This document shows, piece by piece, positions 2,260-61,903 of a DNA stretch of 64,000 bases. The stretch's first letter is position 1, and every line of letters starts with the position of its first letter. The stretch is from Rufibacter sp. DG15C (lineage in GTDB: Bacteria > Bacteroidota > Bacteroidia > Cytophagales > Hymenobacteraceae), in the NCBI RefSeq assembly GCF_001577755.1, contig NZ_CP010776.1, positions 3,038,001 to 3,102,000 of the forward strand, in the 5' to 3' direction. The translations under genes were made by a program, and so were the position numbers. Below the pieces are notes generated by a model. It saw only the letters and a program-made list of their open reading frames with translations, ran no database searches and was not told the origin of the DNA.

Positions 2260-2319
2260 CCATATGCTTTCGTTTTTTGCCTGTTTTCTGGAAATGAGGT
2301 AAAAAACGAAAGCATATGG
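2260..2319. repeat. Palindromic intergenic repeat, copy 1 (extended stem)
   Basis: The core is CGTTTTTTGCCTG, TTTTCTGGAAA, then TGAGGTAAAAAACG. The stem continues outward for 11 more bases (ccatatgcttt / aaagcatatgg) that are specific to this locus. It sits between the divergent genes at 2163(-) and 2382(+). Confidence 0.9.
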
Positions 2320-2381
2320 GCCAAGTGATGAAATTATAGCGGGCAGCTAAGTGTTACTGTTCCAGAAAAGGTATATTATTG

Positions 2382-2573
2382 ATGATGACCGAACAAGAAT
2401 TTGACGCCCATTATGCAGACGCCCTAGAAAACATCCTGGTGGCCATGGCAGAGAACGGTGAGATTGATCCTGCAAAGTTCTACAACATGGCGTGCGTCAT
2501 AGAGAACCTTCGGTTTTTCAGCCCGGTGTTGTTTGCCGCCATCAAACCCTCACAAGAGAATGAGTCCCTTTAA
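2382..2573 (+). CDS. Small conserved-looking hypothetical protein
   Basis: A 63-residue ORF begins MMTEQEFDAHYADALEN. The preceding in-frame TTG at 2379 could add one residue. It is acidic and predicted largely helical, with no membrane segment, signal peptide or metal motif. It sits between the extended palindromic repeat and the convergent 2H phosphoesterase gene. Its composition looks like real protein (amphipathic helices, few rare residues), but I do not recognise the family. Existence is probable; function is unknown. Confidence 0.6.
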   Translation: MMTEQEFDAHYADALENILVAMAENGEIDPAKFYNMACVIENLRFFSPVLFAAIKPSQENESL

Positions 2574-2609
2574 ACCAAAGCGTGGCTCTTTCTAAAAGAC
2601 ATGATTTAC

Positions 2610-3119
2610 CTATCTTCCTTGGAAGTCAAATCGCTCCAACAACTCCCATGGTCCGTTCATGTACCGCCACAGCGTAAGGCCCGTGGCAACTGTGACAAAC
2701 GGCTGAAAATCGCTGCTTAAGGTTTGCAACAAAGCGTTCGCCGCCTCAGGGGTTACCTTGTTTTGTACCGTGATGTGCGGCCTCAGCTTTTGTTGGTCCT
2801 GGGCAGTTAAGGATGAGAACCAGCGCTGTTGCAACTGTGCATGCAAGTTAGTAAGCGTTTCGCTCTCTATCTTAAAAGCCACTCCTCTTCCCAATGGCAT
2901 GAGCCCTGTCACTTGCAATGGAAAGCTGGCTTGCCGCTGGCATCCTTTCAGGATGGTTTCTCTAAGTTCCTGTTCAGGGAGGGTTAGGTGATGGAAGAGG
3001 GTGAGATGGGCGTCCAAGAAATTGCGTTCCTTGGGGAAGTGCTGTTTCCGTAACTGGTCAAAATACGCCTGCGCCTCTGGCATTATGGCCAAGGTTAGAA
3101 TAAGGGGAGCCTGTTCCAT
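2610..3119 (-). CDS. 2'-5' RNA ligase family protein (2H phosphoesterase)
   Basis: This 169-residue protein has the two signature motifs of the LigT/2H phosphoesterase superfamily: H-L-T-L around residue 39 (DAHLTLFHHL) and H-I-T-V around residue 115 (RPHITVQNK). These form the symmetric active site that opens or forms 2'-5' or cyclic phosphodiesters in RNA or nucleotides. Length matches the family. The N-terminus APLILTLAIMPEAQAYFDQLR fits the usual first strand and helix. It is convergent with the small ORF at 2382-2573. The physiological substrate cannot be told from sequence. Confidence 0.88.
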   Translation of the reverse strand: MEQAPLILTLAIMPEAQAYFDQLRKQHFPKERNFLDAHLTLFHHLTLPEQELRETILKGCQRQASFPLQVTGLMPLGRGVAFKIESETLTNLHAQLQQRWFSSLTAQDQQKLRPHITVQNKVTPEAANALLQTLSSDFQPFVTVATGLTLWRYMNGPWELLERFDFQGR

Positions 3120-3150
3120 AGAATTAATTTTTGCCCAAACACTTTAAACG

Positions 3151-3181
3151 AAAAGCCTCTCCCAACAGGAGAGGCTTTTTT
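3151..3181. terminator. Terminator downstream of gamma-glutamyltransferase gene
   Basis: AAAAGCCTCTCC-caac-aGGAGAGGCTTTTTTA is a GC stem with a T tract (A tract on the other strand). It lies between the ggt stop (3226) and the 2H phosphoesterase start (3119). It can act on either strand. Confidence 0.8.
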
Positions 3182-3225
3182 ATGCTAGGCTGAAAATAGG
3201 TAGCTGTGATTAGTTATAGGGGAGA

Positions 3226-7620: not shown

Positions 7621-7676
7621 CTCTAGCTTCGTTTTTGGCTTCTTTCTCAGAAAACAAGCCAAAAACGAAGCTAGAG
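7621..7676. repeat. Palindromic intergenic repeat, copy 2 (extended stem)
   Basis: The core is CGTTTTTGGCTTC ... CAAGCCAAAAACG around TTTCTCAGAAAA. It is extended by nine locus-specific complementary bases on each side (ctctagctt / aagctagag). It lies between the convergent acylase and SIMPL genes. Confidence 0.92.
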
Positions 7677-7769: not shown

Positions 7770-7813
7770 AGTCGTTTTTAGCCTATTTTCCAGGAAATAG
7801 GCTAAAAACGACT
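7770..7813. repeat. Palindromic intergenic repeat, copy 3
   Basis: AGTCGTTTTTAGCC, TATTTTCCAGGAAATA, GGCTAAAAACGACT is a perfect 14-bp stem. The usual GG/CC step is replaced by AG/CT on both arms, a compensatory change. It lies 94 bp after copy 2 in the same gap. Confidence 0.93.
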
Positions 7814-13675: not shown

Positions 13676-13713
13676 CGTTTTTGGCTTATTTTCCAGAAAA
13701 CAGGCCAAAAACG
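13676..13713. repeat. Palindromic intergenic repeat, copy 4
   Basis: CGTTTTTGGCTTA, TTTTCCAGAAAA, CAGGCCAAAAACG. It lies 70 bp upstream of the P-type ATPase start. Read on the minus strand it is open and encodes the misleading peptide MACFLENKPKT. Confidence 0.93.
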
Positions 13714-13897: not shown

Positions 13898-13943
13898 GTG
13901 TCATTTTTGGGCTATTTTCTAGAATATAAGCCAAAAACGGCAC
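13898..13943. repeat. Palindromic intergenic repeat, copy 5
   Basis: GTGTCATTTTTGGGCTA, TTTTCTAGAATA, TAAGCCAAAAACGGCAC. It is somewhat decayed (T/G mismatches), with gtg/cac closing the base. It lies just beyond the stop of the VIT-type transporter gene. Confidence 0.85.
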
Positions 13944-17979: not shown

Positions 17980-19167
17980 TTAAAACAAGGTCAAAGGGAA
18001 AGATTCGCCCGCCAAAAAATGGTCTCTGTCTGCCGGAAGCATCAGTAGGCCATCGGCTATCAAGATACTAGTCAAATCACCGGAACCCGTGGTTGGCACG
18101 GCCGTGGCCTTTAACATTCCATCTTGATTGTTTAGGCTAACTGCCAGGTGATAGGTGAGGGATGGCTTGAATGTTACATCATGCTTTAGTTGCGCCCAGT
18201 CTTGTTTCTTCTGTAAGCCCAGGCAATGTCTCAACCAAGGCTTGAAATACAAATGGTAGCAAACGAATGTAGACACCGGGTTGCCGGGAAACCCGAAGAC
18301 CACCTGCCCACCAGGCATGCGGCCAAACAGCATGGGTTTGCCTGGTTTTTGGGCTATTTTATGGAAAACAGGCAAAAAACGGAGTTGCTCCAATACCTGC
18401 GGCAGGTAATCAAACTTGCCCTTAGACACGGCTCCTGAAAGTAATATCGCATCATGCTCCTCTAAAATGGAAGCCAATTGTTCACGCATCACCTCGGGAT
18501 CATCTGGCAGGTGAATCAATTGGACATTGATATGCTCTCGTTGCAACTCGGCTGCCAGCATGAACACGTTTGACTTCCTGATTTGATGAGGCAGGGGCGA
18601 CTGGTCTACGTCCACTAATTCATTCCCGGTGGAACAGATGGCCACTTTGGGCAGACGGTAGACCGGCACTGTGGAATACCCAACCGTAGCCAAGGTGCCA
18701 ATCATGGCAGGCGTGATGCGTTGGCCCCGGTGAAGCAAGACCGTGCCTTTTGGGCAATCTGCACCTTGCCGGTGAATGTTCTGCCCCAATAGAATTTGGT
18801 CTGTAAGAACAGTGGCTTGGTTGTCTTCTAGCTGGCAGCTTTCATAAGGTATTACTGCATTGGTATTTAAGGGAAGCATGGCGCCAGTCATTACTTCCAC
18901 ACAGTTCTTGGGATTGGACAAAGTGGTTGGCGGCTCACCGGCGGCTTGTATCTGTGAGATGGGAAAGGTCCTGGTGCCTTGCTCAAACTCCCCCAGATCA
19001 ATGGCAATCCCATCCATGGTCACGCGGTCAAACGGCGGAAAGTCGCGGTCTGCCTTCACCTCCTGCGCCAATACGCGGTTTAATGACTGCAACAAAGGCA
19101 CTACTTCCACCGGCAGGGAAAGGGTTTGCTGCAACACTAACTGCAAGGCTTGCTCTACTGAGATCAT
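17980..19167 (-). CDS. moeA: Molybdopterin molybdenumtransferase MoeA
   Basis: The 395-residue protein follows the MoeA/gephyrin-E layout: SLNRVLAQEVKADRDFPPFDRVTMDGIAI, the GAMLPLNTNAVIPYE segment, the MoCF-like core CSTGNELVD, SGAVSKGKFDYLPQVLEQL, then FHKIAQKPGKPMLFGRMPGGQVVFGFPGNPVS. MoeA inserts molybdate into adenylylated molybdopterin. It is the last gene of the tight run moaC-mobA-moeB-TSUP-moeA. At 18349-18392 the coding sequence itself contains a copy of the palindromic repeat, which encodes the RFLPVFHKIAQKPG stretch. Confidence 0.95.
   Translation of the reverse strand: MISVEQALQLVLQQTLSLPVEVVPLLQSLNRVLAQEVKADRDFPPFDRVTMDGIAIDLGEFEQGTRTFPISQIQAAGEPPTTLSNPKNCVEVMTGAMLPLNTNAVIPYESCQLEDNQATVLTDQILLGQNIHRQGADCPKGTVLLHRGQRITPAMIGTLATVGYSTVPVYRLPKVAICSTGNELVDVDQSPLPHQIRKSNVFMLAAELQREHINVQLIHLPDDPEVMREQLASILEEHDAILLSGAVSKGKFDYLPQVLEQLRFLPVFHKIAQKPGKPMLFGRMPGGQVVFGFPGNPVSTFVCYHLYFKPWLRHCLGLQKKQDWAQLKHDVTFKPSLTYHLAVSLNNQDGMLKATAVPTTGSGDLTSILIADGLLMLPADRDHFLAGESFPLTLF
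18349..18392. repeat. Palindromic repeat, copy 6, inside moeA coding sequence
   Basis: CCTGGTTTTTGGGCTA, TTTTATGGAAAA, CAGGCAAAAAACGGAG. It matches the family over its whole length with two stem mismatches. The moeA reading frame crosses it and encodes a peptide (FHKIAQKPGKP) that is itself conserved in MoeA proteins. Confidence 0.75.
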
Positions 19168-22097: not shown

Positions 22098-22135
22098 CGT
22101 TTTTGGCCTGATTTCTGGAAAAGAGGCCAAAAACG
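22098..22135. repeat. Palindromic intergenic repeat, copy 7
   Basis: CGTTTTTGGCCTG, ATTTCTGGAAAA, GAGGCCAAAAACG. It is a near-consensus copy between moaA and moaC, two genes on the same strand that would otherwise be cotranscribed. Confidence 0.95.
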
Positions 22136-24080: not shown

Positions 24081-24120
24081 TCATTTTTGCCTTGTTTTCA
24101 GGAAAATCGGCTAAAAATGA
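24081..24120. repeat. Palindromic intergenic repeat, copy 8
   Basis: TCATTTTTGCCTTG, TTTTCAGGAAAA, TCGGCTAAAAATGA. Both outer arms changed together (TCATTTTT / AAAAATGA instead of CGTTTTT / AAAAACG), keeping the stem. It lies between moaD and the mocA-like gene. Confidence 0.88.
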
Positions 24121-28168: not shown

Positions 28169-28723
28169 AACACACCCCTTTGTTTTATAGAACGAAGTAT
28201 GTCCTTGATTGATTGGCTTTTACTGGAAAATAATTGAGCGTTAGCAAGAAATGCTATTTCTATAATTTTCCGATGCAATGTCTCCAGTAAATGGAGAGGT
28301 GAGTGTGACGAAAGAAAAGGAATAAGAGAGGTTTAATTACCAAGAGGTGCCGATTTTGGCTTGTTTTCTGGAAAGTAGTCCAAAATCGAGGTTAGTAATT
28401 TATTAGGGAAATAATACTGCCGAAGCGAAGATAAAGCAGATAGGTATAAATTCTGAGGTGAGGATATCTACATAAACGGCTCTTCTTTTCTTGGTGGCAT
28501 TATATCCAAGTAGCTGAGCATAGGGAGAATAAGGTTGAACCGTAAGTAATATCATCTCTCTTCCGGTTTAAATCTACCTTTCACGTATAAGCACATATAT
28601 AAGCGGTGTATCCAGCTACAGTTCAATGTTAAGAGAGCAAAATTAAGCTCTTCTCCTTTCCCTAAGGTCTTCCTTCAGGCCAAGGCCGCCTTTGTCCAAA
28701 TTCCACTCAGCTCTAATTTCAGT
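28169..28723. other. Divergent intergenic region between kinase A and kaiC-like gene
   Basis: This 555-bp non-coding region must hold the promoters of both divergent genes. It contains palindromic repeat copy 9. I see no confident promoter pair or recognisable RNA. Confidence 0.5.
28351..28388. repeat. Palindromic intergenic repeat, copy 9
   Basis: CGATTTTGGCTTG, TTTTCTGGAAAG, TAGTCCAAAATCG. The third stem base changed on both arms (CGA / TCG), a compensatory substitution. It is the last copy before an approximately 18.5-kb stretch with none. Confidence 0.9.
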
Positions 28724-41518: not shown

Positions 41519-44500
41519 ATGAAGTTTTCTGCCACCTCCTTTTTCATCCGTGCTTTGCAGGGATTGAGTCTTCTAATTCTAATTTGTACGGTCAGTTGCC
41601 GCGGCAAAAGTGATGAGCTTAGGTTGGACCGCCAGAACTTTCAAGAGGAGATTGAACAGGAGCAGAACCTAGTCTTCACCTTTGATAAAAAGTTGGTGTC
41701 AGATTCCCTGCTGAACCAATGGGACACGGTACCCTATATTAAGTTCACCCCGGCGGTTGAAGGCAAGTTCAAATGGGCCAGCCCCGATGAATTGGTGTTT
41801 TCACCCACCAAACCTTTTGCTCCGTCTACCAATTATAAGGCAGAGTTGACACCTAATCTGCTCAAGCACGCAGAGAATAAATTCAAGATTCCGGCAGGGC
41901 AAGAGGTTCAGTTTCATACACCCTTTCTGGTACTAGAAAAAACCAGAACGTTTTGGGTACAGAACCAAAACAACCCCAATGAACTAGAAGCCAGCATTCA
42001 GTTGAACTTTAACTATCCGGTGACTTATGCCAAGCTGATAGATCTTTTGAAAGTGTATCAAGAACAGACCGCTTTGCCATTTGAATTAGTAAGCAGCAAC
42101 CGAGATCAGCTGACGCTTAAAGTAAAGCAAGTCAACCAAAGCTCAAGTGGTCCCATTGCCCTACGTCTTATCATTGCCAAAGGCCTCACTACTGCCGGCA
42201 GTTCTTACGCTACTCCCCAAACCATAGACAAAGAAATTTCCCTTCCCACCAAGGCGCAGATGCAAGTTCGGGAAGTATATGGCACACAAGAAGAAGGACA
42301 GGAAAGCATTTATGTGTACACTTCACAACCCGTTACCAATCCAGATGTGCAGAGCTTAGTGACCGTAAGTCCCTACCGAACCTTTACAGTTGAACGACTG
42401 GACAATGGGTTGGTGCTCAGAGGCAGTTTTACCGGAAGCTCTGCCTATACAGTTTCTGTTTCTGGGGAACTAAGCGGCATCGTTGGGCAACCATTGGGGC
42501 AGACTTCCCAACATAGGGTTGACTTTGGGAACACTACACCCACGCTTTCATTTGTGGACCAAAAAGCCGTGTACCTCAGCAGTCAGGGTTCCCGAAACCT
42601 TGCTTTAAATCTAGCCCAGGTACCCCGCATCAAAGTGACCATCAGCAAGGTGTATGAAAACAACATTCTTCGTTTCCTGCAAGAGGGCAAGTCTTATGAC
42701 GGCTATTATAATGAGGAAACGGAGGAGTATCATGATTATGAAACTTATCAGGTAAGCGAGCAGAACGGTAAAGTTATTTATGAACGGGAGTACGAAGCTG
42801 GGAGCCTGCCTAAAAGTGGAAGCCAATCCTTGCTAAATCTTGATCTAGCCGACCTGGATTTTGACAGCCAGTTCAAAGGCCTGTATGTCTTGACCGTGGC
42901 CAGCGCTGATAAAATCTGGATGCAGGATTCCAAAATCATCTCGGTCTCGGATATAGGCTTGATTGCCAAGCAAGGCCAGAATGAGGTAATGCTGTTTGCC
43001 AATTCCATCCATACCGCCGAGGCCCTGTCTGGAGTAGAGGTAAGGTTCATTAGCACCAACAACCAGGTGGTATACAAAGCCACGACAGATGACGATGGAG
43101 TAGCCCGTCTGCCAGATATGGCCAAGAACGCGCCTGACTTTAAAATTAGCCTCATCACGGCGCGCCAAGGACAGGACTTTAACTACCTGCCCTACAGCCA
43201 GACCACCGTCAACACCTCGCGCTTTGACGTGGGCGGCAAGCGCTTGGAAGGCGTAATCTATGACGCATTCATATACGGAGACCGCGACTTGTACCGGCCC
43301 GGCGACACCGTGCACGTGAATACGCTGGTACGTACCCCAGAATGGAAAACCGTGGCCAGCCTGCCCATTAAAATCAAGCTCCTATTGCCCAATGGAAAAG
43401 AGTACCGCAGCCAGAAGGGCACCTTGAACCAAGAGGGAGCCCGCACGACAGATTTCTACCTGCCAGCCTCGGCGGTGACCGGTACCTACACGCTAGAGGT
43501 GTATTCTGGAAATGACGTGCTTTTGAATTCTCAGAAGATTGGCGTGGAGGAGTTCATGCCTGACCGCCTCAAAGTCACTACCAAACTCAATAAAACCAAT
43601 TTCAAAACAGGAGAGCAGGTGCAGGTAAGTCTGAATGCATTGAACCTCTTCGGGCCGCCCGCCGCCGGACGTGATTATGAAGTGCAGTTGAGCTTAAAGA
43701 AGAAAGATTTTGAACCGAAGAATTATCCTGACTACAACTTTGAGATTAATACGTCTAACGAGGTAGAGATTCAGACCAGCGTACGGCAAGGCCAGACAGA
43801 TGCGCAGGGGAACGGACAGGAGCAGTTTGAGTTGATGGGCCATAAAGATATTGGCATGCTGGACGGCTCCGTGTTTACCACCGTGTTTGATGAAACCGGC
43901 CGGCCCGTGAACCGCCTCAACCGCTTTACCGTGAGTACCCAAGAAAGCTTCTTCGGGATTAAGAAGTTTGACACCTACGTGAATACTCAAACGGCCATGC
44001 AAGTGCCGCTTATTGCCTTGAATAGCGCCGGCAGACCTACATTTGCCCGGGCACGCGTGCAGGTAGTGCGGTACTTATATGAATCGGTGATTGAGCGCAT
44101 GGACCAAAGCTACGGCTATAACTCGCAGCGCAAAGAGATTGTGTTGGTAGATGAAGCCATGGATATTCCGGCCGCTGGCAAGGTCTTCTCGTTTACGCCT
44201 TCCGCGTCCGGTGAGTATGAACTGCGCATCATGCGTCCCAATGCCTATAATTACGTGGTGCAGCGGTTCTATGCCTACGGGTATGGAAATACCCAGAATA
44301 CCTCCTTTGAAGTAAGCAAAGAAGGCGAGGTGGGCATTTCTTTGGACAAGGAAACCTATGAGGTAGGTGAAAAAGCTCAAGTCCTATTTAAGTCTCCGTT
44401 TGCAGGCAAGATTCTGGTAACCGTGGAGCAGAATAAGGTCCTGAGCTACCATTACCTGGACACCGATAAAAAAGCGGCCTCTTTTACTTTGCCCATTCAA

Positions 44501-46951
44501 GACGAATTCCTGCCCACGGTTTACATCTCGGCCATTGCCCTCCGTGAAATCAAGGACAACAGCCTGCCCATGACCATTGCCCGCGGGTTCAAGGCCGTGG
44601 CCGTCACCAAGAAGGCGACTAAGCTGGACGTAGCCGTAATAGCGCCAGAACTCACCCGCTCCAAAAGAACGCAGTTGGTGAAAGTGAAAACCGTTCCTAA
44701 TGCGCAGGTAACTTTAGCGGTAGTAGACGAAGGTATTCTACAGCTCAAAGACTTCAAGACGCCAGACCCGCACGGGTTTTTCTACCAGAAGCGCGCCCTG
44801 GAAGTGAATGCTTTTGATTTGTACCCATACCTGTTTCCTGAGATTGGCAACCGTCGTTCCAGCGTGGGCGGCGACGGCTATGACCTGGAGAAGCGTGTGA
44901 ATCCTTTGACCTCTAAGCGCGTGAAACTGGTCTCTATCTGGAGCGGCCACCTCAAAACCAATAGCAACGGCGAGGCTTCTGTCAACGTGAAAGTACCGGA
45001 ATTCTCAGGTACCTTGCGGGTGATGGCAGTGGCTTACAAAGGCAACTCCTTCGGTTCTGCAGAGAAGTTGCTCCGGGTAGCCGACCCGATTGTGCTGAGC
45101 ACCGCCTTGCCGCGATTTGCCAGTCCTAAAGATACTCTACAAGTGCCCGTCATGGTAAGCAATACCACTGGCAAGGCTACGGACTTGAAAAGTAGTATTA
45201 CCGTGACCGGACCGTTGCGCGTAGTGGGTGCAACCTCCAAAACCGCCAGAGTAAATGCCAATACTGAGACGCAGGTGGTCTACCAAGTGGTGGCGGCTTC
45301 GGCCACGGGGCCGGCCTCTGTGGTTGTAAAAGTTAATGCGCTAGGTGAACAGTTTAGTAGCAGCACGGATCTTACCGTTCGGCCGGCTGCGCCTTTAACT
45401 AAAATTACTGGAGCAGGTTCACTGAAAGATGCGGCCACTGCTACTATCACTCCGGCGCATGACTTCATCTCCACCTCAGTAGCGTCTAAAATAGTAGTGA
45501 GCAGTTCGCCTCTGGCACAGTTCACTGATGATATTACCTATTTGTTGCAGTATCCGCATGGCTGCTTAGAGCAGACGGTTTCTACCGCGTTTCCGCTGCT
45601 GTATTACGCAGACTTGGCCCGCGCCCTTAACCAAGGCCAGAAAGGCCGCGCCTTCAACCCGAACCACCTGGTACAGGAAGGCATCACCAAGGTGGAGCTC
45701 ATGCAGCAATATGACGGTGGCTTTACCTATTGGCCCGGTGCCACCCAAACCGATTGGTGGAGCAGCGCTTACGGTACCCATTTCTTGCTGGAGGCCAAGA
45801 AAGCAGGCTACCCGGTAAGCCAGGAAGTATTGAAAAAGGCAGTTGCCTACCTTCAAAACAAGGTCAAAACCAAAGCCACCGAGGTATACAAATTCTACAA
45901 CGTTCAACGGAAAGTAGAAAGCAAACTGATTGCCGCCCATGAAGCGTCTTACTCCTTGTACGTGCTCAGTCTGGCAGGCAAACCAGATTGGCCTACCATG
46001 AACTACTACAAGTCCAAGCCAGACTTGTTGGCGATGGATTCTCGGTACTTGTTAGCCAGCACGTACGCGCTCAATGGAAGCTACCAGAGCTTCAGTCAGA
46101 TTCTACCAAAGTCATTTGCAGGCGAAACCTCAGTGCGAGCCTTGGATGGAAGCTTCTATTCGCCGGTGCGGGACATGGCCATCTCTCTGAACAGTTTGGT
46201 AGAGGCTAACCCAGAACATCCGCAGGTGGGCACCTTGTCTCGGCATTTGTCACAAGAACTCAAGTCCAAGCGGTGGTACAATACTCAGGAGCGGGCTTTC
46301 GCATTATTAGCCTTGGGCAAACTGGCCAGCCGAAGCAAGGGAAACCAGACGGCGCAGTTGATACAAAACGGGAAAGCCCTTGGAACCTACTCGGGCAAAG
46401 ACCTGACCTTATCCAATAAACTGAGCACCGTGCCCGTGAGCCTTCAGAGCAAAGGAAAAGGCATTCTGTATTACTATTGGGAACTGGAAGGCATTAGTCA
46501 GAGTGGTGCGTACAAGCAGGAAGACAGTTACCTGAAAGTGCGCAAAACCTTCTTTGACCGCAACGGGAAAGCCCTCACCAACAATACTTTCAAGCAGAAT
46601 GATTTGGTGATTGTACGGGTGGAGTTACAGACATTGGATACAAGGTCTATACCAAATGTAGCCATCACCGATATGCTGCCGGCAGGTTTTGAGATTGAGA
46701 ACCCCCGCCTGATGACGGCCCGTGAGTTTCAGTGGCTCCAAAAGATGAATCCCGGCACGCCAGACCACATGGACATCCGGGATGACCGCATCAACCTGTA
46801 TGCCACTGCCAGGCCAAAACCCCAATACTTCTTCTACCAGGTGCGGGCGGTAAGTAAGGGTACCTTCCAGATGGGACCCATTGGCGCCGACGCCATGTAC
46901 AACGCCGAGTACCATTCCTACAACGGAGCCGGGGTGGTGCGGGTGAGGTAG
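41519..46951 (+). CDS. Alpha-2-macroglobulin family lipoprotein
   Basis: The 1810-residue protein has a lipoprotein signal (LLILICTVSC, Cys about 27). The first 600 residues hold MG-type beta domains. The bait/MG region includes GGKRLEGVIYDAFIYGDRDLYRPGDTVHVNTLVRTPEW and VEEFMPDRLKVT. The thioester motif CLEQ is intact at about 1349-1352 (PHGCLEQTVSTAFPLLYYADL), followed by helical thioester-domain repeats (QQYDGGFTYWPG). Bacterial forms are periplasmic and trap proteases covalently. The thioester Cys and Gln are both present, so it should be active. pbpC follows after two palindromic repeats, the classic macroglobulin-PBP1C pairing. Confidence 0.95.
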   Translation: MKFSATSFFIRALQGLSLLILICTVSCRGKSDELRLDRQNFQEEIEQEQNLVFTFDKKLVSDSLLNQWDTVPYIKFTPAVEGKFKWASPDELVFSPTKPFAPSTNYKAELTPNLLKHAENKFKIPAGQEVQFHTPFLVLEKTRTFWVQNQNNPNELEASIQLNFNYPVTYAKLIDLLKVYQEQTALPFELVSSNRDQLTLKVKQVNQSSSGPIALRLIIAKGLTTAGSSYATPQTIDKEISLPTKAQMQVREVYGTQEEGQESIYVYTSQPVTNPDVQSLVTVSPYRTFTVERLDNGLVLRGSFTGSSAYTVSVSGELSGIVGQPLGQTSQHRVDFGNTTPTLSFVDQKAVYLSSQGSRNLALNLAQVPRIKVTISKVYENNILRFLQEGKSYDGYYNEETEEYHDYETYQVSEQNGKVIYEREYEAGSLPKSGSQSLLNLDLADLDFDSQFKGLYVLTVASADKIWMQDSKIISVSDIGLIAKQGQNEVMLFANSIHTAEALSGVEVRFISTNNQVVYKATTDDDGVARLPDMAKNAPDFKISLITARQGQDFNYLPYSQTTVNTSRFDVGGKRLEGVIYDAFIYGDRDLYRPGDTVHVNTLVRTPEWKTVASLPIKIKLLLPNGKEYRSQKGTLNQEGARTTDFYLPASAVTGTYTLEVYSGNDVLLNSQKIGVEEFMPDRLKVTTKLNKTNFKTGEQVQVSLNALNLFGPPAAGRDYEVQLSLKKKDFEPKNYPDYNFEINTSNEVEIQTSVRQGQTDAQGNGQEQFELMGHKDIGMLDGSVFTTVFDETGRPVNRLNRFTVSTQESFFGIKKFDTYVNTQTAMQVPLIALNSAGRPTFARARVQVVRYLYESVIERMDQSYGYNSQRKEIVLVDEAMDIPAAGKVFSFTPSASGEYELRIMRPNAYNYVVQRFYAYGYGNTQNTSFEVSKEGEVGISLDKETYEVGEKAQVLFKSPFAGKILVTVEQNKVLSYHYLDTDKKAASFTLPIQDEFLPTVYISAIALREIKDNSLPMTIARGFKAVAVTKKATKLDVAVIAPELTRSKRTQLVKVKTVPNAQVTLAVVDEGILQLKDFKTPDPHGFFYQKRALEVNAFDLYPYLFPEIGNRRSSVGGDGYDLEKRVNPLTSKRVKLVSIWSGHLKTNSNGEASVNVKVPEFSGTLRVMAVAYKGNSFGSAEKLLRVADPIVLSTALPRFASPKDTLQVPVMVSNTTGKATDLKSSITVTGPLRVVGATSKTARVNANTETQVVYQVVAASATGPASVVVKVNALGEQFSSSTDLTVRPAAPLTKITGAGSLKDAATATITPAHDFISTSVASKIVVSSSPLAQFTDDITYLLQYPHGCLEQTVSTAFPLLYYADLARALNQGQKGRAFNPNHLVQEGITKVELMQQYDGGFTYWPGATQTDWWSSAYGTHFLLEAKKAGYPVSQEVLKKAVAYLQNKVKTKATEVYKFYNVQRKVESKLIAAHEASYSLYVLSLAGKPDWPTMNYYKSKPDLLAMDSRYLLASTYALNGSYQSFSQILPKSFAGETSVRALDGSFYSPVRDMAISLNSLVEANPEHPQVGTLSRHLSQELKSKRWYNTQERAFALLALGKLASRSKGNQTAQLIQNGKALGTYSGKDLTLSNKLSTVPVSLQSKGKGILYYYWELEGISQSGAYKQEDSYLKVRKTFFDRNGKALTNNTFKQNDLVIVRVELQTLDTRSIPNVAITDMLPAGFEIENPRLMTAREFQWLQKMNPGTPDHMDIRDDRINLYATARPKPQYFFYQVRAVSKGTFQMGPIGADAMYNAEYHSYNGAGVVRVR

Positions 46952-46957: not shown

Positions 46958-46995
46958 CGTTTTTGGCCTGATTTCCAGAAATCAGGCCAAAAACG
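46958..46995. repeat. Palindromic intergenic repeat, copy 10
   Basis: CGTTTTTGGCCTG, ATTTCCAGAAAT, CAGGCCAAAAACG is a perfect palindrome except the centre. It begins 7 bp after the macroglobulin stop. Confidence 0.96.
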
Positions 46996-47042: not shown

Positions 47043-47080
47043 CGTTTTTAGCCTATTTCCCAGAAACTAGGCTAAAAAAG
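47043..47080. repeat. Palindromic intergenic repeat, copy 11
   Basis: CGTTTTTAGCCTA, TTTCCCAGAAAC, TAGGCTAAAAAAG. It has paired AG/CT variants as in copy 3. It is 48 bp after copy 10 and 37 bp before the pbpC start. Confidence 0.92.
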
Positions 47081-47116: not shown

Positions 47117-49459
47117 ATGCCGCTTCACCAAAATTCACCTGCTAAACTAACCCTCTTTTTTAGAAAGAAATGGGTGTTGCGCGTGTTGGCGGCAGTGGTC
47201 ATTCCAGTTGTGGTGTTTCTACTGTTGAACTGGGCATTTCCGTTGCAGGTGAAAGTATCGTACTCGCCCGTCATTACGGCGGCAGATGGGAGCGTGGTGC
47301 ATGCCTTTTTAAGCCGAGATGACAAGTGGCGCATGCAACTAGAGCCAGATGAAATCAATCCGGTGCTTAAGAAAGCCGTGATACTCAAGGAGGACCAATA
47401 CTTCTATGCTCACCCAGGCGTAAATCCGTTTGCCGTGGCGCGAGCAGTGGTAAACAATTTGACCAAAGGCCGAAAAACCTCAGGTGCCTCTACCATTACC
47501 ATGCAGGTGGCGCGTTTGCTGTACCCTAAAGACCGAACCTACGCCAACAAACTGGTGGAGGTATTCAGGGCGCTGCAATTGGAATGGGTGTATAGCAAAG
47601 ACGAAATTCTGCAGCTTTACCTCAACTTGGTACCCTACGGCGGAAACATTGAAGGCGTGAAAGCGGCCTCGGTGCTTTATTTTCAGCAGTCTCCGCGGGC
47701 TTTGAGTTTGGCACAAGCCGTGGCGCTTACGGTCATTCCCAATAAGCCTTCGTCTCTGAGGATTGGCGTGCAAAATGAGCGCATTGTGGCCTTCCGGAAC
47801 AAGTGGTTGCAGGAGTACCAGCAACTACACGCCTTCCCGAAGGAGGCCATTGAAGACGCCTTGCATGAACCGCTGGACGCCTTTAGAGTGCAGGCTCCCA
47901 AGTTGGCGCCGCACTTTGCCTACCGCATGCTCAAAAAATACCCGGGCAAGGCTATCATCAAAACCACGCTCAAACCCGCAGTGCAGGAGAAGGTACAACA
48001 GCTGGCTTTTAATTATCTGCAACGTCTCAAAGCCTTGAACATTCACAACGCGGCTGTGTTGGTGCTCAATAACCAAACCCAGGCCGTGGAAGCTTACTTG
48101 GGCTCCGCTGATTTTACAGATGACATGCACGCCGGGCAGGTGGACGGCGTACGCGCGCTGCGGTCGCCGGGCAGTACCCTGAAACCCTTTCTGTACGCCG
48201 CCGCCTTTGACAAAGGCCTGATTACGCCCAAGACCATTATCACTGATGTGCCCATAGACTATTCTGGATATCGCCCCGAAAACTACTATGGCACCTACAA
48301 CGGCAGCGTGACCATTGAACGAGCCTTGGCAACGTCATTGAATATTCCGGCGGTAAAAGTGCTGGACCAGATGGGCGTGGAGGCCTTCGTGCAGAAACTG
48401 CAGCAGGCTGAGTTTTCTGAGATGAAGGGCCGCGGCAAGCACATGGGCTTATCCATGATTCTAGGAGGGTGCGGCGCCACGTTAGAGGAATTGACCTCGT
48501 TGTACTCAGCCTTCGCGAATGGGGGGAAGCAAGCGCCGCTCAGGTGGTTGCAGCATAATACCTTAAGGCAGGAAAAGCAGTTAATATCGGAGGCCTCGGC
48601 GTTCATGGTGAACCAGATTCTTACCCAACTACAACGCCCCGACCTACCGCATAATGCCCAAAACAGCTCTTACTTGCCAAAAATCGCCTGGAAAACCGGG
48701 ACCTCCTACGGTCGCAAAGACGCTTGGAGCATTGGCTACAACCAGCACTACACCATTGGCGTATGGGTGGGCAATTTCTCAGGGGAAGGCGTACCCGAAT
48801 TGAACGGCACCGACACGGCCACTCCTTTGCTTTTTTCGCTCTTCAACACCATAGATTACAATAGCACTGGTAGTTGGTACCTAGCCCCCAAAGGCCTTGG
48901 TTTTAGAAGCGTTTGCCCCCAGAGTGGCTTGCCCGTGAACAGTTTCTGTCAAGACCAACTGGTTGACACCTACATTCCGGGAACGTCGTCTGTGAACAAG
49001 TGCGCGCACTTAAAGAAAGTGAATGTCTCTGAAGACGGTAAATTTGCCTATTGCACCAGTTGCCAACCAGAGAGCGGATTCACCCAGAAATGGTACCCCA
49101 ACCTGCCGCCTGAGCTGCTCAGTTTTTACGCTCAGGAAAACCTCCCGTTCCAGAAACTCCCTCCGCACAACCCCAACTGCAACCGTATTTTTCAGGAATT
49201 CGCGCCTGTTATCACTTCGCCCACAGCCAACATGGAATTTCTGCTGGAGCGCGAGGAGCGTCAAAAGCTCATGTTGCATTGCAATACCCTCAACGAAGTG
49301 AAAAAGGTCTATTGGTACGTAAACGACAAGCTCCTGCAAGCTGCTGCCTCTGATGAGCGAGTGTTCTTTGAACCAGACAAAGCCGGTAAGTACAAAATCT
49401 CCTGCACCGATGACCAAGGCCGCAACACCAACAGCTACATCACGGTTAAGTTTTTATAG
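47117..49459 (+). CDS. pbpC: Penicillin-binding protein 1C
   Basis: The 780-residue protein has an N-terminal membrane anchor (VLRVLAAVVIPVVVFLLLNWAF). A GT51 glycosyltransferase domain has EDQYFYAHPGVNP and SGASTITMQVARLLYP. The transpeptidase has active-site Ser353 in SPGSTLKP (SxxK) and the KTGTSYG motif near 530. A C-terminal BiPBP_C domain (about 690-780) ends the protein. It polymerises and cross-links peptidoglycan in the periplasm. The macroglobulin upstream probably protects against proteases when the wall is breached, as proposed for this gene pair in other bacteria. Five Cys in the 600-660 insert are unusual. Confidence 0.95.
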   Translation: MPLHQNSPAKLTLFFRKKWVLRVLAAVVIPVVVFLLLNWAFPLQVKVSYSPVITAADGSVVHAFLSRDDKWRMQLEPDEINPVLKKAVILKEDQYFYAHPGVNPFAVARAVVNNLTKGRKTSGASTITMQVARLLYPKDRTYANKLVEVFRALQLEWVYSKDEILQLYLNLVPYGGNIEGVKAASVLYFQQSPRALSLAQAVALTVIPNKPSSLRIGVQNERIVAFRNKWLQEYQQLHAFPKEAIEDALHEPLDAFRVQAPKLAPHFAYRMLKKYPGKAIIKTTLKPAVQEKVQQLAFNYLQRLKALNIHNAAVLVLNNQTQAVEAYLGSADFTDDMHAGQVDGVRALRSPGSTLKPFLYAAAFDKGLITPKTIITDVPIDYSGYRPENYYGTYNGSVTIERALATSLNIPAVKVLDQMGVEAFVQKLQQAEFSEMKGRGKHMGLSMILGGCGATLEELTSLYSAFANGGKQAPLRWLQHNTLRQEKQLISEASAFMVNQILTQLQRPDLPHNAQNSSYLPKIAWKTGTSYGRKDAWSIGYNQHYTIGVWVGNFSGEGVPELNGTDTATPLLFSLFNTIDYNSTGSWYLAPKGLGFRSVCPQSGLPVNSFCQDQLVDTYIPGTSSVNKCAHLKKVNVSEDGKFAYCTSCQPESGFTQKWYPNLPPELLSFYAQENLPFQKLPPHNPNCNRIFQEFAPVITSPTANMEFLLEREERQKLMLHCNTLNEVKKVYWYVNDKLLQAAASDERVFFEPDKAGKYKISCTDDQGRNTNSYITVKFL

Positions 49460-51020: not shown

Positions 51021-51055
51021 AAAAAAGCCCTTCAGTTTTTTCTGAAGGGCTTTTT
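51021..51055. terminator. Terminator shared by metallopeptidase gene (+) and tRNA-Glu (-)
   Basis: AAAAAAGCCCTTCAG-ttttt-tCTGAAGGGCTTTTT abuts the CCA end of the minus-strand tRNA and has T tracts in both directions. Confidence 0.85.
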
Positions 51056-51129
51056 GGTAGTCCGTAGGGGAATCGAACCCCTGTTACCAGAATGAAAATC
51101 TGGTGTCCTAACCCCTAGACGAACGGACC
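51055..51129 (-). tRNA. tRNA-Glu (UUC), copy 1
   Basis: On the minus strand GGTCCGT pairs with ACGGACT, and the anticodon stem-loop contains ATTTTCATT (anticodon TTC). The T-arm has GGTTCGATTCC, and discriminator A and CCA are encoded. A hairpin terminator follows directly. The 136-bp block with its promoter is identical to that of copy 2. Confidence 0.96.
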
Positions 51130-52492: not shown

Positions 52493-52527
52493 AAAAAAGC
52501 CGCTCCATTTACATGAAGCGGCTTTTT
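52493..52527. terminator. Terminator of tRNA-Glu copy 2
   Basis: AAAAAAGCCGCT-ccatttacatga-AGCGGCTTTTT abuts the CCA end of the minus-strand tRNA. It has a different stem sequence from the copy 1 terminator, which marks the edge of the duplication. Confidence 0.82.
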
Positions 52528-52601
52528 GGTAGTCCGTAGGGGAATCGAACCCCTGTTACCAGAATGAAAATCTGGTGTCCTAACCCCTAGACGAACGGAC
52601 C
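52527..52601 (-). tRNA. tRNA-Glu (UUC), copy 2
   Basis: This is identical in sequence to copy 1, including anticodon TTC, T-arm GGTTCGATTCC and encoded CCA. It has its own upstream promoter and downstream terminator. Confidence 0.96.
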
Positions 52602-53808: not shown

Positions 53809-53843
53809 AAGTGGTGTTGCTGTAGAGCGGCACCACTTTTTTT
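53809..53843 (+). terminator. Terminator of gapA
   Basis: AAGTGGTGTTGC, loop TGTAGA, GCGGCACCACTT, then T7. It is a typical intrinsic terminator 28 bp after the gapA stop. Its T run is shared with the left end of palindromic repeat copy 12. Confidence 0.88.
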
Positions 53844-53874
53844 GTCTATTTTTACCAAAACAGGCCAAAAACGA
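53837..53874. repeat. Palindromic intergenic repeat, copy 12 (ACC-loop variant)
   Basis: TTTTTTTGTCTA, TTTTTACCAAAA, CAGGCCAAAAACG. The left arm is partly decayed and the centre is TTTTTACCAAAA rather than TTTTCTGGAAAA. It ends 15 bp before the lipid kinase start. Confidence 0.8.
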
Positions 53875-55194: not shown

Positions 55195-55232
55195 CATTTT
55201 TACCCTGTTTTCTGGAAATCAGGTCAAATACG
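55195..55232. repeat. Palindromic intergenic repeat, copy 13
   Basis: CATTTTTACCCTG, TTTTCTGGAAAT, CAGGTCAAATACG. It is a decayed copy between the convergent SUI1 and kdsB genes. Confidence 0.78.
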
Positions 55233-56055: not shown

Positions 56056-56093
56056 CGTTTTTGGCTTACTTTTACCAAAACAGCCCAAAAACG
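56056..56093. repeat. Palindromic intergenic repeat, copy 14 (ACC-loop variant)
   Basis: CGTTTTTGGCTTA, CTTTTACCAAAA, CAGCCCAAAAACG. The repeat ends one base before the ATG of the DUF4905 gene, so it occupies the leader and would fold over the start region. Confidence 0.93.
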
Positions 56094-56931: not shown

Positions 56932-56944
56932 GAAATAGAGTCCA

Positions 56945-58129: not shown

Positions 58130-58131
58130 GG

Positions 58132-58168
58132 CGTTTTGCCCTGTTTTCACCAAAAGAGGCGAAAAACG
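58132..58168. repeat. Palindromic intergenic repeat, copy 15 (ACC-loop variant)
   Basis: CGTTTTGCCCTG, TTTTCACCAAAA, GAGGCGAAAAACG. It starts 2 bp after the LysM gene stop. Its right half is repeated in inverted orientation 18 bp later (58185-58204). Confidence 0.88.
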
Positions 58169-59120: not shown

Positions 59121-59245
59121 AGAAGTAGAATTTCCTCGGCTAGTCGCCATGCTCAAATTTTCAATCTTCAGAATCTATGCCTCTCTTTTGTCATCCTGAA
59201 AGGACCTTGAGGCCGAATTAGTTAGGCGGTGGCTAAAAGTGCATT

Positions 59246-59282
59246 CGTTTTCGGGTTGTTTTCTTTAAACTACCCAAAAACG
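59246..59282. repeat. Palindromic intergenic repeat, copy 16
   Basis: CGTTTTCGGGTTG, TTTTCTTTAAAC, TACCCAAAAACG. It is a diverged copy between the TIGR02757 gene and mutS2. Confidence 0.85.
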
Positions 59283-59375
59283 GATTCAAGCTTCAAACCC
59301 ATACCTTGTAAACTTTCCCTCAAATAATTCCTCCCACCAAGGAACATCCCATTACCTCAATCTGTTATCCAATGC

Positions 59376-59404
59376 TTGGCAATGCTGTTTTTAACCTACT
59401 TTTG
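59376..59404 (+). promoter_or_regulatory. Candidate mutS2 promoter, overlapping a repeat
   Basis: TTGG (59376), 17-bp spacer, TACTTTTG (59397-59404). The -7-like element lies inside the loop side of palindromic repeat copy 17. It is 53 bp before the TTG start. Confidence 0.45.
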
Positions 59405-59424
59405 TGAAAACAGGCCGCAGAACG
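59385..59424. repeat. Palindromic intergenic repeat, copy 17 (decayed)
   Basis: CTGTTTTTAACCTA, CTTTTGTGAAAA, CAGGCCGCAGAACG. The left arm and base are degraded but the order of elements is kept. It lies 33 bp before the mutS2 start. Confidence 0.7.
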
Positions 59425-59456
59425 AATTAAAACAACGAACTACACAAAAAGAGAAC

Positions 59457-61862
59457 TTGATATATCCATCAAATTTTGAACAGAAGATAGGTTTCGGGCA
59501 GATTAAAGAAATGCTGTCAGATGCTTGTCTAAGTCCCTTGGGCCGCCGCTTTGTAGACCGCGTTCAGTTCCTGAACCGCTTTGACCTGGTAGAGCGCCTT
59601 TTACACCAAGCTGATGAGTTTTCGCAAATTCTAAACTCTGGCGAGGATTTTCCTTCTCAATACTATTTTGACGTAACTGAGCACCTGAACCGTGCCGCCT
59701 TGGAAGGTGCGTTCATGGAGGTGCGCGGCGTCTTTGAAATCAAAATGTCTCTGCGGGCCATCCGGCAGGCGCTGGGCTTTTTCTATGAGTCGGATGAAGC
59801 CGCGTTCCCGGCCCTGAAAGCCCTGACCCAAGGCGTGGAAGTGGACCGTGCCCTGGTGGCCGCCATGGACAAGCTGGTGGATGATTCTGGCAATGTGCGC
59901 GAGGACGCCTCACCTGAGTTGCAGCGCGTAAAGCGCGAACTCATTGGCCAGCAAACGCAATTGCGTAAAACCATCAGCAGCATTCTACGCCACGCCAAGA
60001 ACGAAGGCTGGACGCCCGGTGATGCTGAGCCTACCATCAGGGGCGGTCGTTTGGTAATTCCTATCATCGCCGAGTACAAGCGCCGCATCAAAGGTCTCAT
60101 CCATGATGAGTCAACCACCGGCCAGACCATTTACCTGGAGCCCGAAAGCGTCTTTGAGCTCAACAATGACATCAAAGACCTGGAGAACGCCTACCACCGC
60201 GAGCTGATTAGACTGTTGACGGCTATCACCAACCAGGTACGTCATCATCTGCCTAACCTTAAGAAAGCGTATCAGTTCTTGTCTTTGCTGGATTTCATCA
60301 GAGCCAAGGCAGTTTTGGCCAACCGCATTGGTGGGGTCATGCCTAAGCTGCAGAAACAGCAAATCATTAAGTGGAAGGACGCGCGCCACCCCATCCTGCA
60401 TTTGACCATGCTGGCCCACGGCAAAAAGGCGGTTCCGCTGTCTTTGGAGTTAAACCCAGAGCAGCGCATCCTGTTGATTTCGGGCCCGAACGCCGGTGGT
60501 AAATCGGTGGCCATGAAGACGGTAGGGCTGTTGCAGTATATGCTGCAGTGCGGACTGCTCATTCCGGTAGGCGAGGGTTCTGAGGCAGGCATGTTTGATG
60601 ACGTCTTCCTGGACATGGGCGATGAGCAATCCATTGAAAACGACCTGAGTACCTACAGCTCGCACTTGCAGAACATGAAGCAATTTGTGCTCTTTGCGGG
60701 TAAGAAGTCATTGGTCTTGATAGATGAGTTTGGTACCGGTACAGAGCCTGTACTGGGTGGTGCCATAGCTGAGGCGGTGCTTGGTCAACTGCATCAAGCC
60801 AACGTGTACGGGGTCATCACTACCCACTATACCAACCTGAAGAACTTCGCAGAAAAGACGCCGGGTATTGTGAACGGGGCCATGCGCTATAATCCCGCCG
60901 AATTGCAACCGCTGTACCAGCTGGAGATTGGCAAGCCGGGTAGTTCGTTTGCCCTGGAGATTGCCCGCAAGATTGGCCTGCCTAAGAATATCCTTGACAA
61001 GGCCGGTAACTTGGTGGGCAAGGAAAAAATTCGCTATGACAAACTGCTGGAGCAATTAGAGCAGGAAAAAACCGACTTTGAGGTGCGCAATGCCAGCGTA
61101 GCCAAGCAGGAACGCAAACTGCAGAAAGCGGTGCAGGAATACACTGCCCTCAAGCAACACCTGGAAGAAAGCAAAACAGACGTTATCCGGAACGCCAAGG
61201 CCCAGGCCAAGCTCTTGCTCAAGGACGCCAATCAGCAGATTGAGAACACCATTGAGCAGATTAGAAAAAGTCAGGCCGAAAAGGAGCAAACCAAAGTGGC
61301 CCGCCAGGAACTGGAGACGTTCAAAGAAAAGCTATTGCCAGAGCCTAAGCCCATCATCAGAAACGGAAACGCCAAAAGCGGTCCGTTGCAGGTTGGTGAG
61401 CGCGTGGTGTTGCAGGGACAGGATTCTGTAGGTGAGTTGTTGGCTGTCAAAGGTAAAACCGCCGAGGTGAGCTTCGGGGGTTTGAAGACCATTGTGAAGC
61501 TGGACAAACTGGAACGCCCTGACCACAACGCCGCCTGGATGAAGGAGAAGAAAGCGAAGGAGCCAGCAGCTCCTTCGGGCCAGACCAAAGGCATGGACGT
61601 GACCCAGCGCATGGCCGACTTCCAGCACACCTTAGATGTGCGCGGCAGGTACGCAGAGGACGCCCTGACTACCGTCATGAACTTCATGGATGACGCCATC
61701 ATGTTGGGCATCCCCGAGGTGAAAATCATCCACGGCCGCGGCAACGGCGTCTTGAAGCAAGTGGTACGGGATTACGTGCGTACCTTGAAAGAAGTAGCCA
61801 GCGTGGGCAATGAGCACATAGAACGCGGCGGCGATGGAGCTTCTGTTATTGTTCTGAAATAA
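59457..61862 (+). CDS. mutS2: Endonuclease MutS2
   Basis: The protein has 801 residues from the TTG at 59457 (LIYPSNFEQKIGFGQIKEMLSD). The ATG at 59376 would add 27 residues partly encoded by the repeat and is rejected. It has MutS core and lever regions, then Walker A GPNAGGKSV, DEFGTGTEP (Walker B/D loop) and TTHYTNLK. A coiled-coil linker follows at about 520-620. A KOW-like segment (VGERVVLQGQDSVGELL) precedes the C-terminal Smr nuclease domain with LDVRGRYAEDA and IIHGRGNGVLKQVV. It acts on recombination intermediates or stalled ribosomes. Confidence 0.96.
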   Translation: MIYPSNFEQKIGFGQIKEMLSDACLSPLGRRFVDRVQFLNRFDLVERLLHQADEFSQILNSGEDFPSQYYFDVTEHLNRAALEGAFMEVRGVFEIKMSLRAIRQALGFFYESDEAAFPALKALTQGVEVDRALVAAMDKLVDDSGNVREDASPELQRVKRELIGQQTQLRKTISSILRHAKNEGWTPGDAEPTIRGGRLVIPIIAEYKRRIKGLIHDESTTGQTIYLEPESVFELNNDIKDLENAYHRELIRLLTAITNQVRHHLPNLKKAYQFLSLLDFIRAKAVLANRIGGVMPKLQKQQIIKWKDARHPILHLTMLAHGKKAVPLSLELNPEQRILLISGPNAGGKSVAMKTVGLLQYMLQCGLLIPVGEGSEAGMFDDVFLDMGDEQSIENDLSTYSSHLQNMKQFVLFAGKKSLVLIDEFGTGTEPVLGGAIAEAVLGQLHQANVYGVITTHYTNLKNFAEKTPGIVNGAMRYNPAELQPLYQLEIGKPGSSFALEIARKIGLPKNILDKAGNLVGKEKIRYDKLLEQLEQEKTDFEVRNASVAKQERKLQKAVQEYTALKQHLEESKTDVIRNAKAQAKLLLKDANQQIENTIEQIRKSQAEKEQTKVARQELETFKEKLLPEPKPIIRNGNAKSGPLQVGERVVLQGQDSVGELLAVKGKTAEVSFGGLKTIVKLDKLERPDHNAAWMKEKKAKEPAAPSGQTKGMDVTQRMADFQHTLDVRGRYAEDALTTVMNFMDDAIMLGIPEVKIIHGRGNGVLKQVVRDYVRTLKEVASVGNEHIERGGDGASVIVLK

Positions 61863-61865
61863 TAC

Positions 61866-61903
61866 CGTTTTTGGGCTATTTCTGAGAAAACAGACCAAAA
61901 ACG
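61866..61903. repeat. Palindromic intergenic repeat, copy 18
   Basis: CGTTTTTGGGCTA, TTTCTGAGAAAA, CAGACCAAAAACG. It begins 4 bp after the mutS2 stop and precedes a conventional terminator. Confidence 0.93.

What the first reader, a model, noticed from the sequence alone, without database searches (positions are those of the whole stretch)
2260..61903. A dense family of 18 short palindromic repeats (about one per 3.5 kb)
Eighteen copies of a ~38-bp palindrome are visible. The arms read CGTTTTTGGCC(T)G and its complement, and the centre is TTTTCTGGAAAA or TTTTACCAAAA. Seventeen are intergenic, between genes in every relative orientation (convergent, divergent, tandem), so simple termination or a single promoter role does not explain them. 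They occur singly or in close pairs (7621/7770, 13676/13898, 46958/47043, 59246/59385). I know of no named family with this sequence, but I cannot search databases. REP/MITE-type elements mobilised in trans, or selected DNA/RNA hairpins, are the main explanations.
Basis: seen in the sequence. Interest (0 to 1): 0.75.

Follow-up and report, generated by a model that had tools for sequence, protein, structure and literature searches.

The report
Genus-wide palindromic DNA sites between genes
One bacterial genus carries from about a hundred to well over a thousand recognisable copies per genome of a 40-base palindrome, usually one per gap between genes and kept in place by selection, which looks like a DNA site for an unknown chromosome-wide protein rather than a jumping repeat.

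Summary
The 18 copies are present, shuffled sequence gives none, and the genome has 1363. All 16 genomes held for the genus carry the family; 246 other genomes sampled across the phylum have no match and 134 of the same family have 0-2. A named relative with it is Rufibacter roseus. The real signature is a T/A frame, GTTT-N6-T-N2-TTT-N4-AAA-N2-A-N6-AAAC: four 7-bp units, two direct 11 bp apart, two inverted; letters between follow species dialects. It does not behave like a mobile-repeat relic: of 58 orthologous gaps, 31 have it in both species, 23 in neither, 4 in one, and the frame stays fixed while several neighbouring letters drift. Copies without an outer stem show little arm covariation, solo halves are rare, and divergent gaps carry copies, so a duplex DNA site fits better than an RNA hairpin. 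About 10% sit inside terminator-like hairpins. Gaps hold exactly one copy far more often than random placement predicts. Best reading: sites for an unidentified dimer-of-dimers protein marking transcription-unit boundaries. Main rivals: a nucleoid-organising site, or a DNA-uptake-type sequence.

The parts
2271..2308 (.). element copy (unique outer stem 2260-2319); divergent gap by the gene caller, whose right-hand ORF is short
7630..7667 (.). element copy with outer stem, convergent gap
7773..7810 (.). element copy, same convergent gap
13676..13713 (.). element copy, tandem gap
13902..13939 (.). element copy, 15 bp after a - strand stop
18344..18381 (.). the one genic copy, inside ORF 17980-19167 (-)
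22098..22135 (.). element copy (25/26), tandem gap
24082..24119 (.). element copy, 5 bp after a - strand stop
28351..28388 (.). element copy in a divergent gap (212 and 335 bp from the two called starts)
46958..46995 (.). perfect copy (26/26), 6 bp after the stop of a macroglobulin-like gene
   Evidence: gene
47043..47080 (.). element copy in the same tandem gap, before a penicillin-binding protein gene
   Evidence: gap compared across relatives
53836..53873 (.). element copy with a TTTTTACCAAAA centre, tandem gap
55195..55232 (.). element copy, convergent gap
56056..56093 (.). element copy, divergent gap by the gene caller
58131..58168 (.). element copy, 1 bp after a + strand stop
59246..59282 (.). 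37-nt copy (11-bp centre), tandem gap
59386..59423 (.). degenerate copy (17/26; frame 14/16), same tandem gap
61866..61903 (.). element copy, 3 bp after the stop of a MutS2-like gene
   Evidence: gene

Best explanation
Each copy is a double-stranded DNA site of about 40 bp for a sequence-specific protein that binds as a dimer of dimers: four 7-bp units (outer YCGTTTT, inner CTGTTTT, then both inverted), one helical turn (11 bp) apart within each half. The genus keeps about one site per gap between transcription units: just after a stop codon, just after or inside a terminator, or between divergent promoters. Shown: the frame, its presence in the whole genus, conservation in place, the rarity of solo halves, one-per-gap spacing, and weak arm pairing in copies without an outer stem. 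Inferred: that a protein binds, that it is a dimer of dimers, and that bound sites act as boundary elements (transcription insulator or roadblock, or a supercoiling barrier) that keep neighbouring units from disturbing each other. A minority of sites have a terminator-like hairpin grown around the same dyad.
For: 1363 forward matches in the genome against 0 for the reversed control. Exact frame in 16 of 16 genus genomes, 85-1332 copies, controls 0. Relaxed frame at 1.9-3.9 per 10 kb in the seven species with 100 kb or more sampled. 32 ortholog pairs: positions T3-T5, T14-T15, A22-A23 and A32-A34 are 0.94-1.00 identical, T11 and A26 0.94 and 0.91, against 0.41-0.66 at positions 7, 10, 12, 16, 18 and 0.28-0.59 in the ungapped flanks. 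Orthologs share more at variable positions than random pairs (0.663 vs 0.568, sd 0.015), so they descend in place. 31 both, 23 neither, 2 and 2 discordant in 58 gaps against G013. 895 gaps hold 0/1/2/3+ copies in 446/400/46/3 cases, against 574/209/69/43 expected per base; 199 half-sites inside full elements and 2 solo in 564 kb. Half-site self-match peaks at an 11-bp offset. Among 311 copies without an outer stem, inner pairs match 476 of 933 against 515 shuffled.
Against: No binder identified: HU (PF00216) and HU-HIG (PF18291) show no genus-consistent extra copy, and an OmpR/PhoB regulator lead is weak. Sites do not replace intrinsic terminators (tandem odds ratio 1.83, p 0.06; convergent 0.46, p 0.16), so a roadblock terminator role is not shown. 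Any site tolerated only in unconstrained DNA would sit at such gaps too. Some arm covariation is not explained by separate half-site binding: in the 252 full-frame copies spacer positions 5-7 and 9 and the flanks covary (z 3-7), as do the exact-frame copies of G004, G003 and G002 at positions 5-7; after splitting by outer stem it is strong with a stem, weak at 2-4 bp (z 3.5), and left at position 6 (z 4.9) without one. Some between-letters are also fairly conserved (0.69-0.84 at 8, 9, 13, 17, 29, 30). Two genus genomes have only 85 and 87 exact-frame copies, and one 20-kb stretch of G009 had none. Gene calls come from my own simple caller.
Confidence: 0.45

Rival explanations
1. Nucleoid-organising site: an abundant architectural protein uses the sites to fold or anchor the chromosome every few kb. 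Gaps are used only because they are the cheap places; transcription boundaries as such do not matter.
For: Copies in all 20 own stretches of 20 kb (2-11 each). Neighbouring gaps under 0.8 kb apart are both occupied less often than permuted (23 of 161 pairs vs 35.3, sd 4.9), and gaps 1.5-3 kb apart more often (99 of 297 vs 79.4, sd 6.4).
Against: The peak at 0-9 bp after stop codons (52 of 207 single tandem copies) and the nesting in terminators suggest a tie to transcription ends. No HU-type paralog is genus-specific.
Confidence: 0.2
2. DNA-uptake-type sequence: the genus recognises kin DNA by this motif during natural transformation, and uptake bias plus recombination maintains it genome-wide.
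For: Shares with the Neisseriaceae uptake sequence (passages of PMC3630211) thousands of copies, species dialects around a conserved core, and an association with permissive intergenic DNA and terminators. One useful copy per stretch of DNA would also give the spacing seen (inference).
Against: Only 16 of 526 copies are genic although about 82% of the 464 kb of own sequence is called coding, whereas intragenic uptake sequences are called common (same passages). The 40-bp palindromic unit and the rarity of solo halves differ from short asymmetric uptake motifs. The three papers listed do not, by title and abstract start, describe one in Bacteroidota.
Confidence: 0.13
3. Preferred site of a type IIA topoisomerase (gyrase-like) relieving supercoils at unit ends, as proposed for E. 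coli REPs.
For: Symmetric footprint of about 34 bp around a 4-bp centre with conserved bases near +/-3-5, +/-8 and +/-14-17, which resembles a topoisomerase gate (recalled). E. coli REPs are said to be gyrase targets (passage of PMC3733652).
Against: Topoisomerase preferences are usually weak and gyrase is near universal (recalled), but the element is genus-restricted. No topoisomerase gene was examined.
Confidence: 0.07
4. RNA hairpin at the 3' ends of transcripts (mRNA stabiliser or bidirectional terminator).
For: 51 of 526 copies have an outer stem of 6 bp or more, against 2.8 expected from swapped flanks; 49 lie beside a gene end, at a median of 28 bp from it. Copies with a stem of 5 bp or more pair throughout (spacer 266 of 290 against 228).
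Against: Divergent gaps carry 65 of 526 copies. Copies without an outer stem show no pairing constraint in the inner arm. No Rfam family matches the elements in the window.
Confidence: 0.08
5. Relic of a mobile palindrome (REP/MITE) that spread in the genus ancestor and is now inherited passively.
For: High copy number and intergenic location; a few gaps differ in occupancy between species.
Against: Position-specific conservation at individual orthologous copies, even spacing, no Y1_Tnp gene in the own genome while the other 15 genus genomes have one or more, and no viral contigs match to the exact consensus.
Confidence: 0.05

Closest known systems
REP/BIME repeats with RAYT transposases (GTAG and CGTC families)
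   Same: 20-40 bp palindromes in high copy, mostly in tandem and convergent gaps, some inside other palindromes (passages of PMC3733652)
   Different: No GTAG or CGTC foot, no Y1_Tnp in the own genome, 65 of 526 copies in divergent gaps, mostly one per gap, conserved in place, little pairing constraint in copies without an outer stem
DNA uptake sequences of Neisseriaceae and Pasteurellaceae
   Same: Thousands of copies, dialects around a fixed core, paired copies associated with terminators (passages of PMC3630211)
   Different: Uptake motifs are short and asymmetric (recalled) and common in genes (same passages); this is a 40-bp four-unit palindrome nearly absent from genes. Uptake was not testable here
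PhoB/OmpR-type operators (7-bp direct repeats with 4-bp spacers; recalled)
   Same: CTGTTTT-N4-CTGTTTT half-site with an 11-bp period
   Different: Two half-sites face each other, and over a thousand copies exist in this genome, mostly between genes; no regulator shown to bind
Bidirectional intrinsic terminators
   Same: About 10% of copies sit inside a hairpin of that kind
   Different: Most copies lack the outer stem, and the element's own T run lies 5' and A run 3', the reverse of a terminator

Membership tests
REP / RAYT system | GTAG (or CGTC) unpaired foot at one end of the hairpin | tested here: not met
   consensus ends YCGTTTTT...AAAAACGR
REP / RAYT system | RAYT (Y1_Tnp, PF01797) gene in the genome | tested here: not met
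   0 in the own genome; one or more in the other 15 genus genomes, few-copy ones included
REP / RAYT system | Folded hairpin with paired arms | tested here: inconclusive
   inner arm pairs in the 311 copies without an outer stem: 476 of 933 against 515 shuffled; met in the 60 stem-extended copies; full-frame copies covary at outer spacers
MITE / insertion-sequence derivative | Presence/absence polymorphism with target duplication | tested here: inconclusive
   4 of 58 gaps discordant with G013; sequences printed; flanks too diverged to score duplications
DNA uptake sequence | High copy with species dialects around a fixed core | tested here: met
DNA uptake sequence | Raises uptake or transformation of DNA that carries it | not testable with these tools
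   needs a transformation assay
DNA uptake sequence | Common inside coding sequence | tested here: not met
   16 of 526 copies genic
Intrinsic terminator | Stem followed by a U run on the transcribed strand | tested here: not met
   an outer stem is present in 51 of 526 copies only; T runs after it were seen in printed rows, not counted
HU/IHF-type site | Genus-specific HU-family protein | tested here: not met
   PF00216 and PF18291 counts alike in 12 genus and 10 other genomes
PhoB/OmpR-type operator | 7-bp direct repeats with an 11-bp period | tested here: met
PhoB/OmpR-type operator | Binding by a member of the family | not testable with these tools
   one RprY-like regulator is in 16 of 16 genus genomes and, at 67% identity, in 1 of 14 others; that one, G040, has a single element match
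Known structured RNA (Rfam 15) | Match above gathering score | tested here: not met
   only two tRNAs in the window

The most novel reading that the evidence does not exclude
A dedicated bacterial boundary system: a genus-specific DNA-binding protein occupies about one four-unit site in most gaps between transcription units and insulates neighbouring units (blocking read-through or supercoil spread). That would be a bacterial counterpart of insulator or roadblock factors, with the site dialect co-evolving with the protein.
Probability: 0.35. Interest if true: 0.93.

Novelty: new variant of a known kind. Interest (0 to 1): 0.77.

Why it matters
If the sites are bound by one protein, this genus has a chromosome-wide boundary or architecture system with over a thousand defined sites in the richest genomes, selected one by one and changing dialect between species. 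It would let one test directly whether bacteria insulate neighbouring transcription units, and how a genome-wide set of sites co-evolves with its binder. If it is instead an uptake code, it would be one in a phylum for which my one search on that point listed no earlier report (three papers, listing only).

Tried and rejected
RAYT-mobilised REP: rejected on PF01797 absence in the own genome, conserved positions and the missing foot. Decaying mobile family: rejected because conservation is position-specific at orthologous copies. RNA hairpin for all copies: first tested on score-selected copies, which biases against correlation; retested on frame-selected copies in 7 species. Full-frame copies did covary at spacers 5-7 and 9 and at flanks; splitting by outer stem put most of this in the stem-extended class, less in copies with 2-4 stem bp, with position 6 left over. 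HU paralogs: no genus-specific copy. OmpR/PhoB family: one genus-core RprY-like regulator, kept only as a lead because it looks like an ordinary two-component gene beside a kinase-like ORF (read by eye), because G040 has it without the element network, and because many genes are genus-core. 38 of the 40 fetched genes entered that comparison. Sites as substitutes for terminators: no clear anticorrelation. Other genera with their own such family: dyad scans of 80 kb each in five genera found none comparable; the same scan listed none for 40 kb of G004, a genus member, so it can miss sparse families. The named-genome query was a poor choice of protein (8 loci, few close) but gave Rufibacter roseus. 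The gapped flank identity was uninformative (0.775 against 0.734 for non-orthologous flanks). The first gene callers missed genes and were replaced. The central dinucleotide prefers CA/TG over TA/CG (positions 18/19 pair less than shuffled in 4 of 7 species) but is poorly conserved between orthologs (0.41 at position 18), with only a slight bias to gene direction (87 vs 56, p 0.012); not interpreted further. Literature: the listings showed no title or abstract start describing this family; passages only were read of PMC3733652, PMC3630211 and PMC2267715.
Full report
What is there. The window holds all 18 reported copies. Sixteen score 19-26 of 26 on the half-site scan, 59246-59282 is one base short, and 59386-59423 is degenerate. 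Forty first-order Markov shuffles gave no site at 20/26. The window is 3038001-3102000 of a 4,143,738-base single contig; that genome has 1363 forward matches at up to 3 mismatches, against 0 for the pattern read backwards.

Distribution. With up to 2 mismatches, 16 of 16 genomes of the genus match, with 17 to 1426 forward copies; the reversed control matched once in one of them and once per strand in one other genome. None of 9 other genomes of the family match, and 1 of 14 in the order has a single match. Reducing the motif to its invariant frame (TTT-N5-CT-N2-TTT-N4-AAA-N2-AG-N5-AAA), exact matches run from 85 to 1332 in 16 of 16 genus genomes; 126 of 134 other genomes of the family have none and 8 have one or two. 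With G and C added at the ends, 0 of 246 other genomes drawn across the phylum match. A named record with the elements is Rufibacter roseus (11 frame hits at 14/16 or better in 22.9 kb; at least one looks like chance); Pontibacter and Cesiribacter records have none and a Cytophagales MAG has one. That the genus is Rufibacter is my inference from this. Five other genera show no comparable dyad in 80 kb each.

Anatomy. 145 of 152 copies in 464 kb have the same 38-bp spacing. Conserved letters are T runs at positions 2-6, 11 and 14-16 and the mirrored A runs; the letters between are freer. In other species the frame stays but the between-letters change: G012 reads GTTTTCGGGCTCATTTC, G005 GTTTAGGGGCTGTTTTT. 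Relaxed-frame density is 1.9-3.9 per 10 kb in the seven species with at least 100 kb sampled; one 20-kb stretch of G009 had none. In G007 and G001 the dyad spacings show GTTTT twice per half, 11 bp apart, and the pooled half-site matches itself best at an 11-bp shift (0.66 against at most 0.53 at shifts of 6-10 and 12-16). The element is thus four 7-bp units with 4-bp spacers, two direct and two inverted. Full halves almost never occur alone: 199 half-sites (16/18 or better) lie inside full elements and 2 are solo in 564 kb.

Selection at each place. I fetched 100 kb beside one own stretch, giving 120 kb, and the matching regions of relatives. Of 58 conserved gaps compared with G013, 31 are occupied in both, 23 in neither, 4 in one only, with offsets often within a few bases. 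Raw counts (both, neither, relative only, own only) for G012 are 10/12/3/2 and for G007 4/5/1/2; with frame detection they become 11/12/3/1 of 27 and 4/5/1/1 of 11 gaps under 1.5 kb. In 32 ortholog pairs the core frame positions are 91-100% identical, while several between-letters are 41-66% and others 69-84% identical and the ungapped flanks 28-59%. Orthologous copies are still more alike at variable positions than random pairs (0.663 against 0.568, sd 0.015), so they descend in place rather than being re-inserted.

Placement. In seven species 526 copies fall into 328 tandem, 107 convergent, 65 divergent, 16 genic and 10 unassigned places (gene calls from a simple caller written here, final form). 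Tandem gaps of 150-250 bp are 73-90% occupied in four species. Across 895 gaps, 446 have none, 400 one, 46 two and 3 three or more; random placement per base would give 574, 209, 69 and 43. Gaps closer than 0.8 kb are both occupied less often than permuted, and gaps 1.5-3 kb apart more often; 0.8-1.5 kb and 3-8 kb show no difference. The commonest distance from a stop codon is 0-9 bp (52 of 207 single tandem copies). Copies lie right after the stop, right after a terminator, or inside one; 178 of 372 copies within 150 bp of a stop have no terminator that my scan could see.

Hairpin or duplex. 51 of 526 copies have an outer stem of at least 6 bp unique to the copy, against 2.8 from swapped flanks; 2 of these lie in divergent gaps. 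Copies with an outer stem of at least 5 bp (60 of 463; 58 tested) pair and covary right to the centre. The 311 copies with at most 1 bp show less inner pairing than shuffled arms (476 of 933 against 515) and no covariation at positions 7 and 9, but do covary at position 6 (z 4.9). Copies with 2-4 bp (92; 90 tested) covary weakly at the spacer (z 3.5). So copies without a stem behave as duplex DNA sites with two half-sites read separately, and a minority have been built into terminator-like hairpins. Against a clean split: in the 252 full-frame copies as a whole, spacer positions 5-7 and 9 and the flanks covary, and so do the exact-frame copies of G004, G003 and G002 at positions 5-7.

Who binds. 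Not found. The own genome has no Y1_Tnp match. HU and HU-HIG families show no genus-specific member in 12 genus and 10 other genomes. The 7+4 spacing recalls PhoB/OmpR operators (recalled). Among those genes, an RprY-like response regulator (name recalled) at 3658348-3659070 is in 16 of 16 genus genomes (75-82% identity outside its own) and, at 67%, in one of 14 others, G040, which has one element match. It is a lead only; genes were fetched for all PF00486 matches of five out-group genomes and for 3 of 7 in G023, and 38 of 40 fetched genes entered the comparison.

Reading. I hold that these are binding sites of a chromosome-wide protein (inferred, fairly likely) that mark boundaries of transcription units (inferred, about even against other roles of such a protein). 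The uptake-sequence reading shares copy number, dialects and terminator link (PMC3630211, passages) and fits the spacing; it cannot be excluded. Near-absence from genes and the long palindromic unit count against it. REPs are placed mainly in tandem and convergent gaps and proposed to act as RNA or gyrase targets (PMC3733652, passages); the present family differs in its foot, its divergent copies, the missing transposase and its per-site conservation.

Noticed in passing
window 51055-51129 and 52527-52601: Two tRNA-Glu (TTC) genes about 1.5 kb apart on the - strand, with equal Rfam scores, each with an inverted repeat directly downstream.
   Followed up: no
L045 (G000:C1:1300001-1320000): Part of this stretch is 92% identical to the second contig of G012 and 90% to G013, above the roughly 80% seen for other regions, with only 2 elements in 20 kb: may be a mobile or plasmid-derived region.
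   Followed up: no
window 41519-46951 and 47117-49459: Macroglobulin-like gene followed by a penicillin-binding protein gene, the longest stretch of the window found syntenic with the sampled relatives.
   Followed up: partly
window 28724-30190: KaiC-like ATPase gene next to a divergent gap that carries an element.
   Followed up: no
L206:548-1273 (G000:C1:3658348-3659070): RprY-like response regulator present in all 16 genus genomes and in 1 of 14 others at 67% identity; weak candidate binder.
   Followed up: partly
element copies in the window and L039-L058: Centre of the palindrome is mostly CA or TG rather than TA or CG, and is poorly conserved between orthologs.
   Followed up: partly
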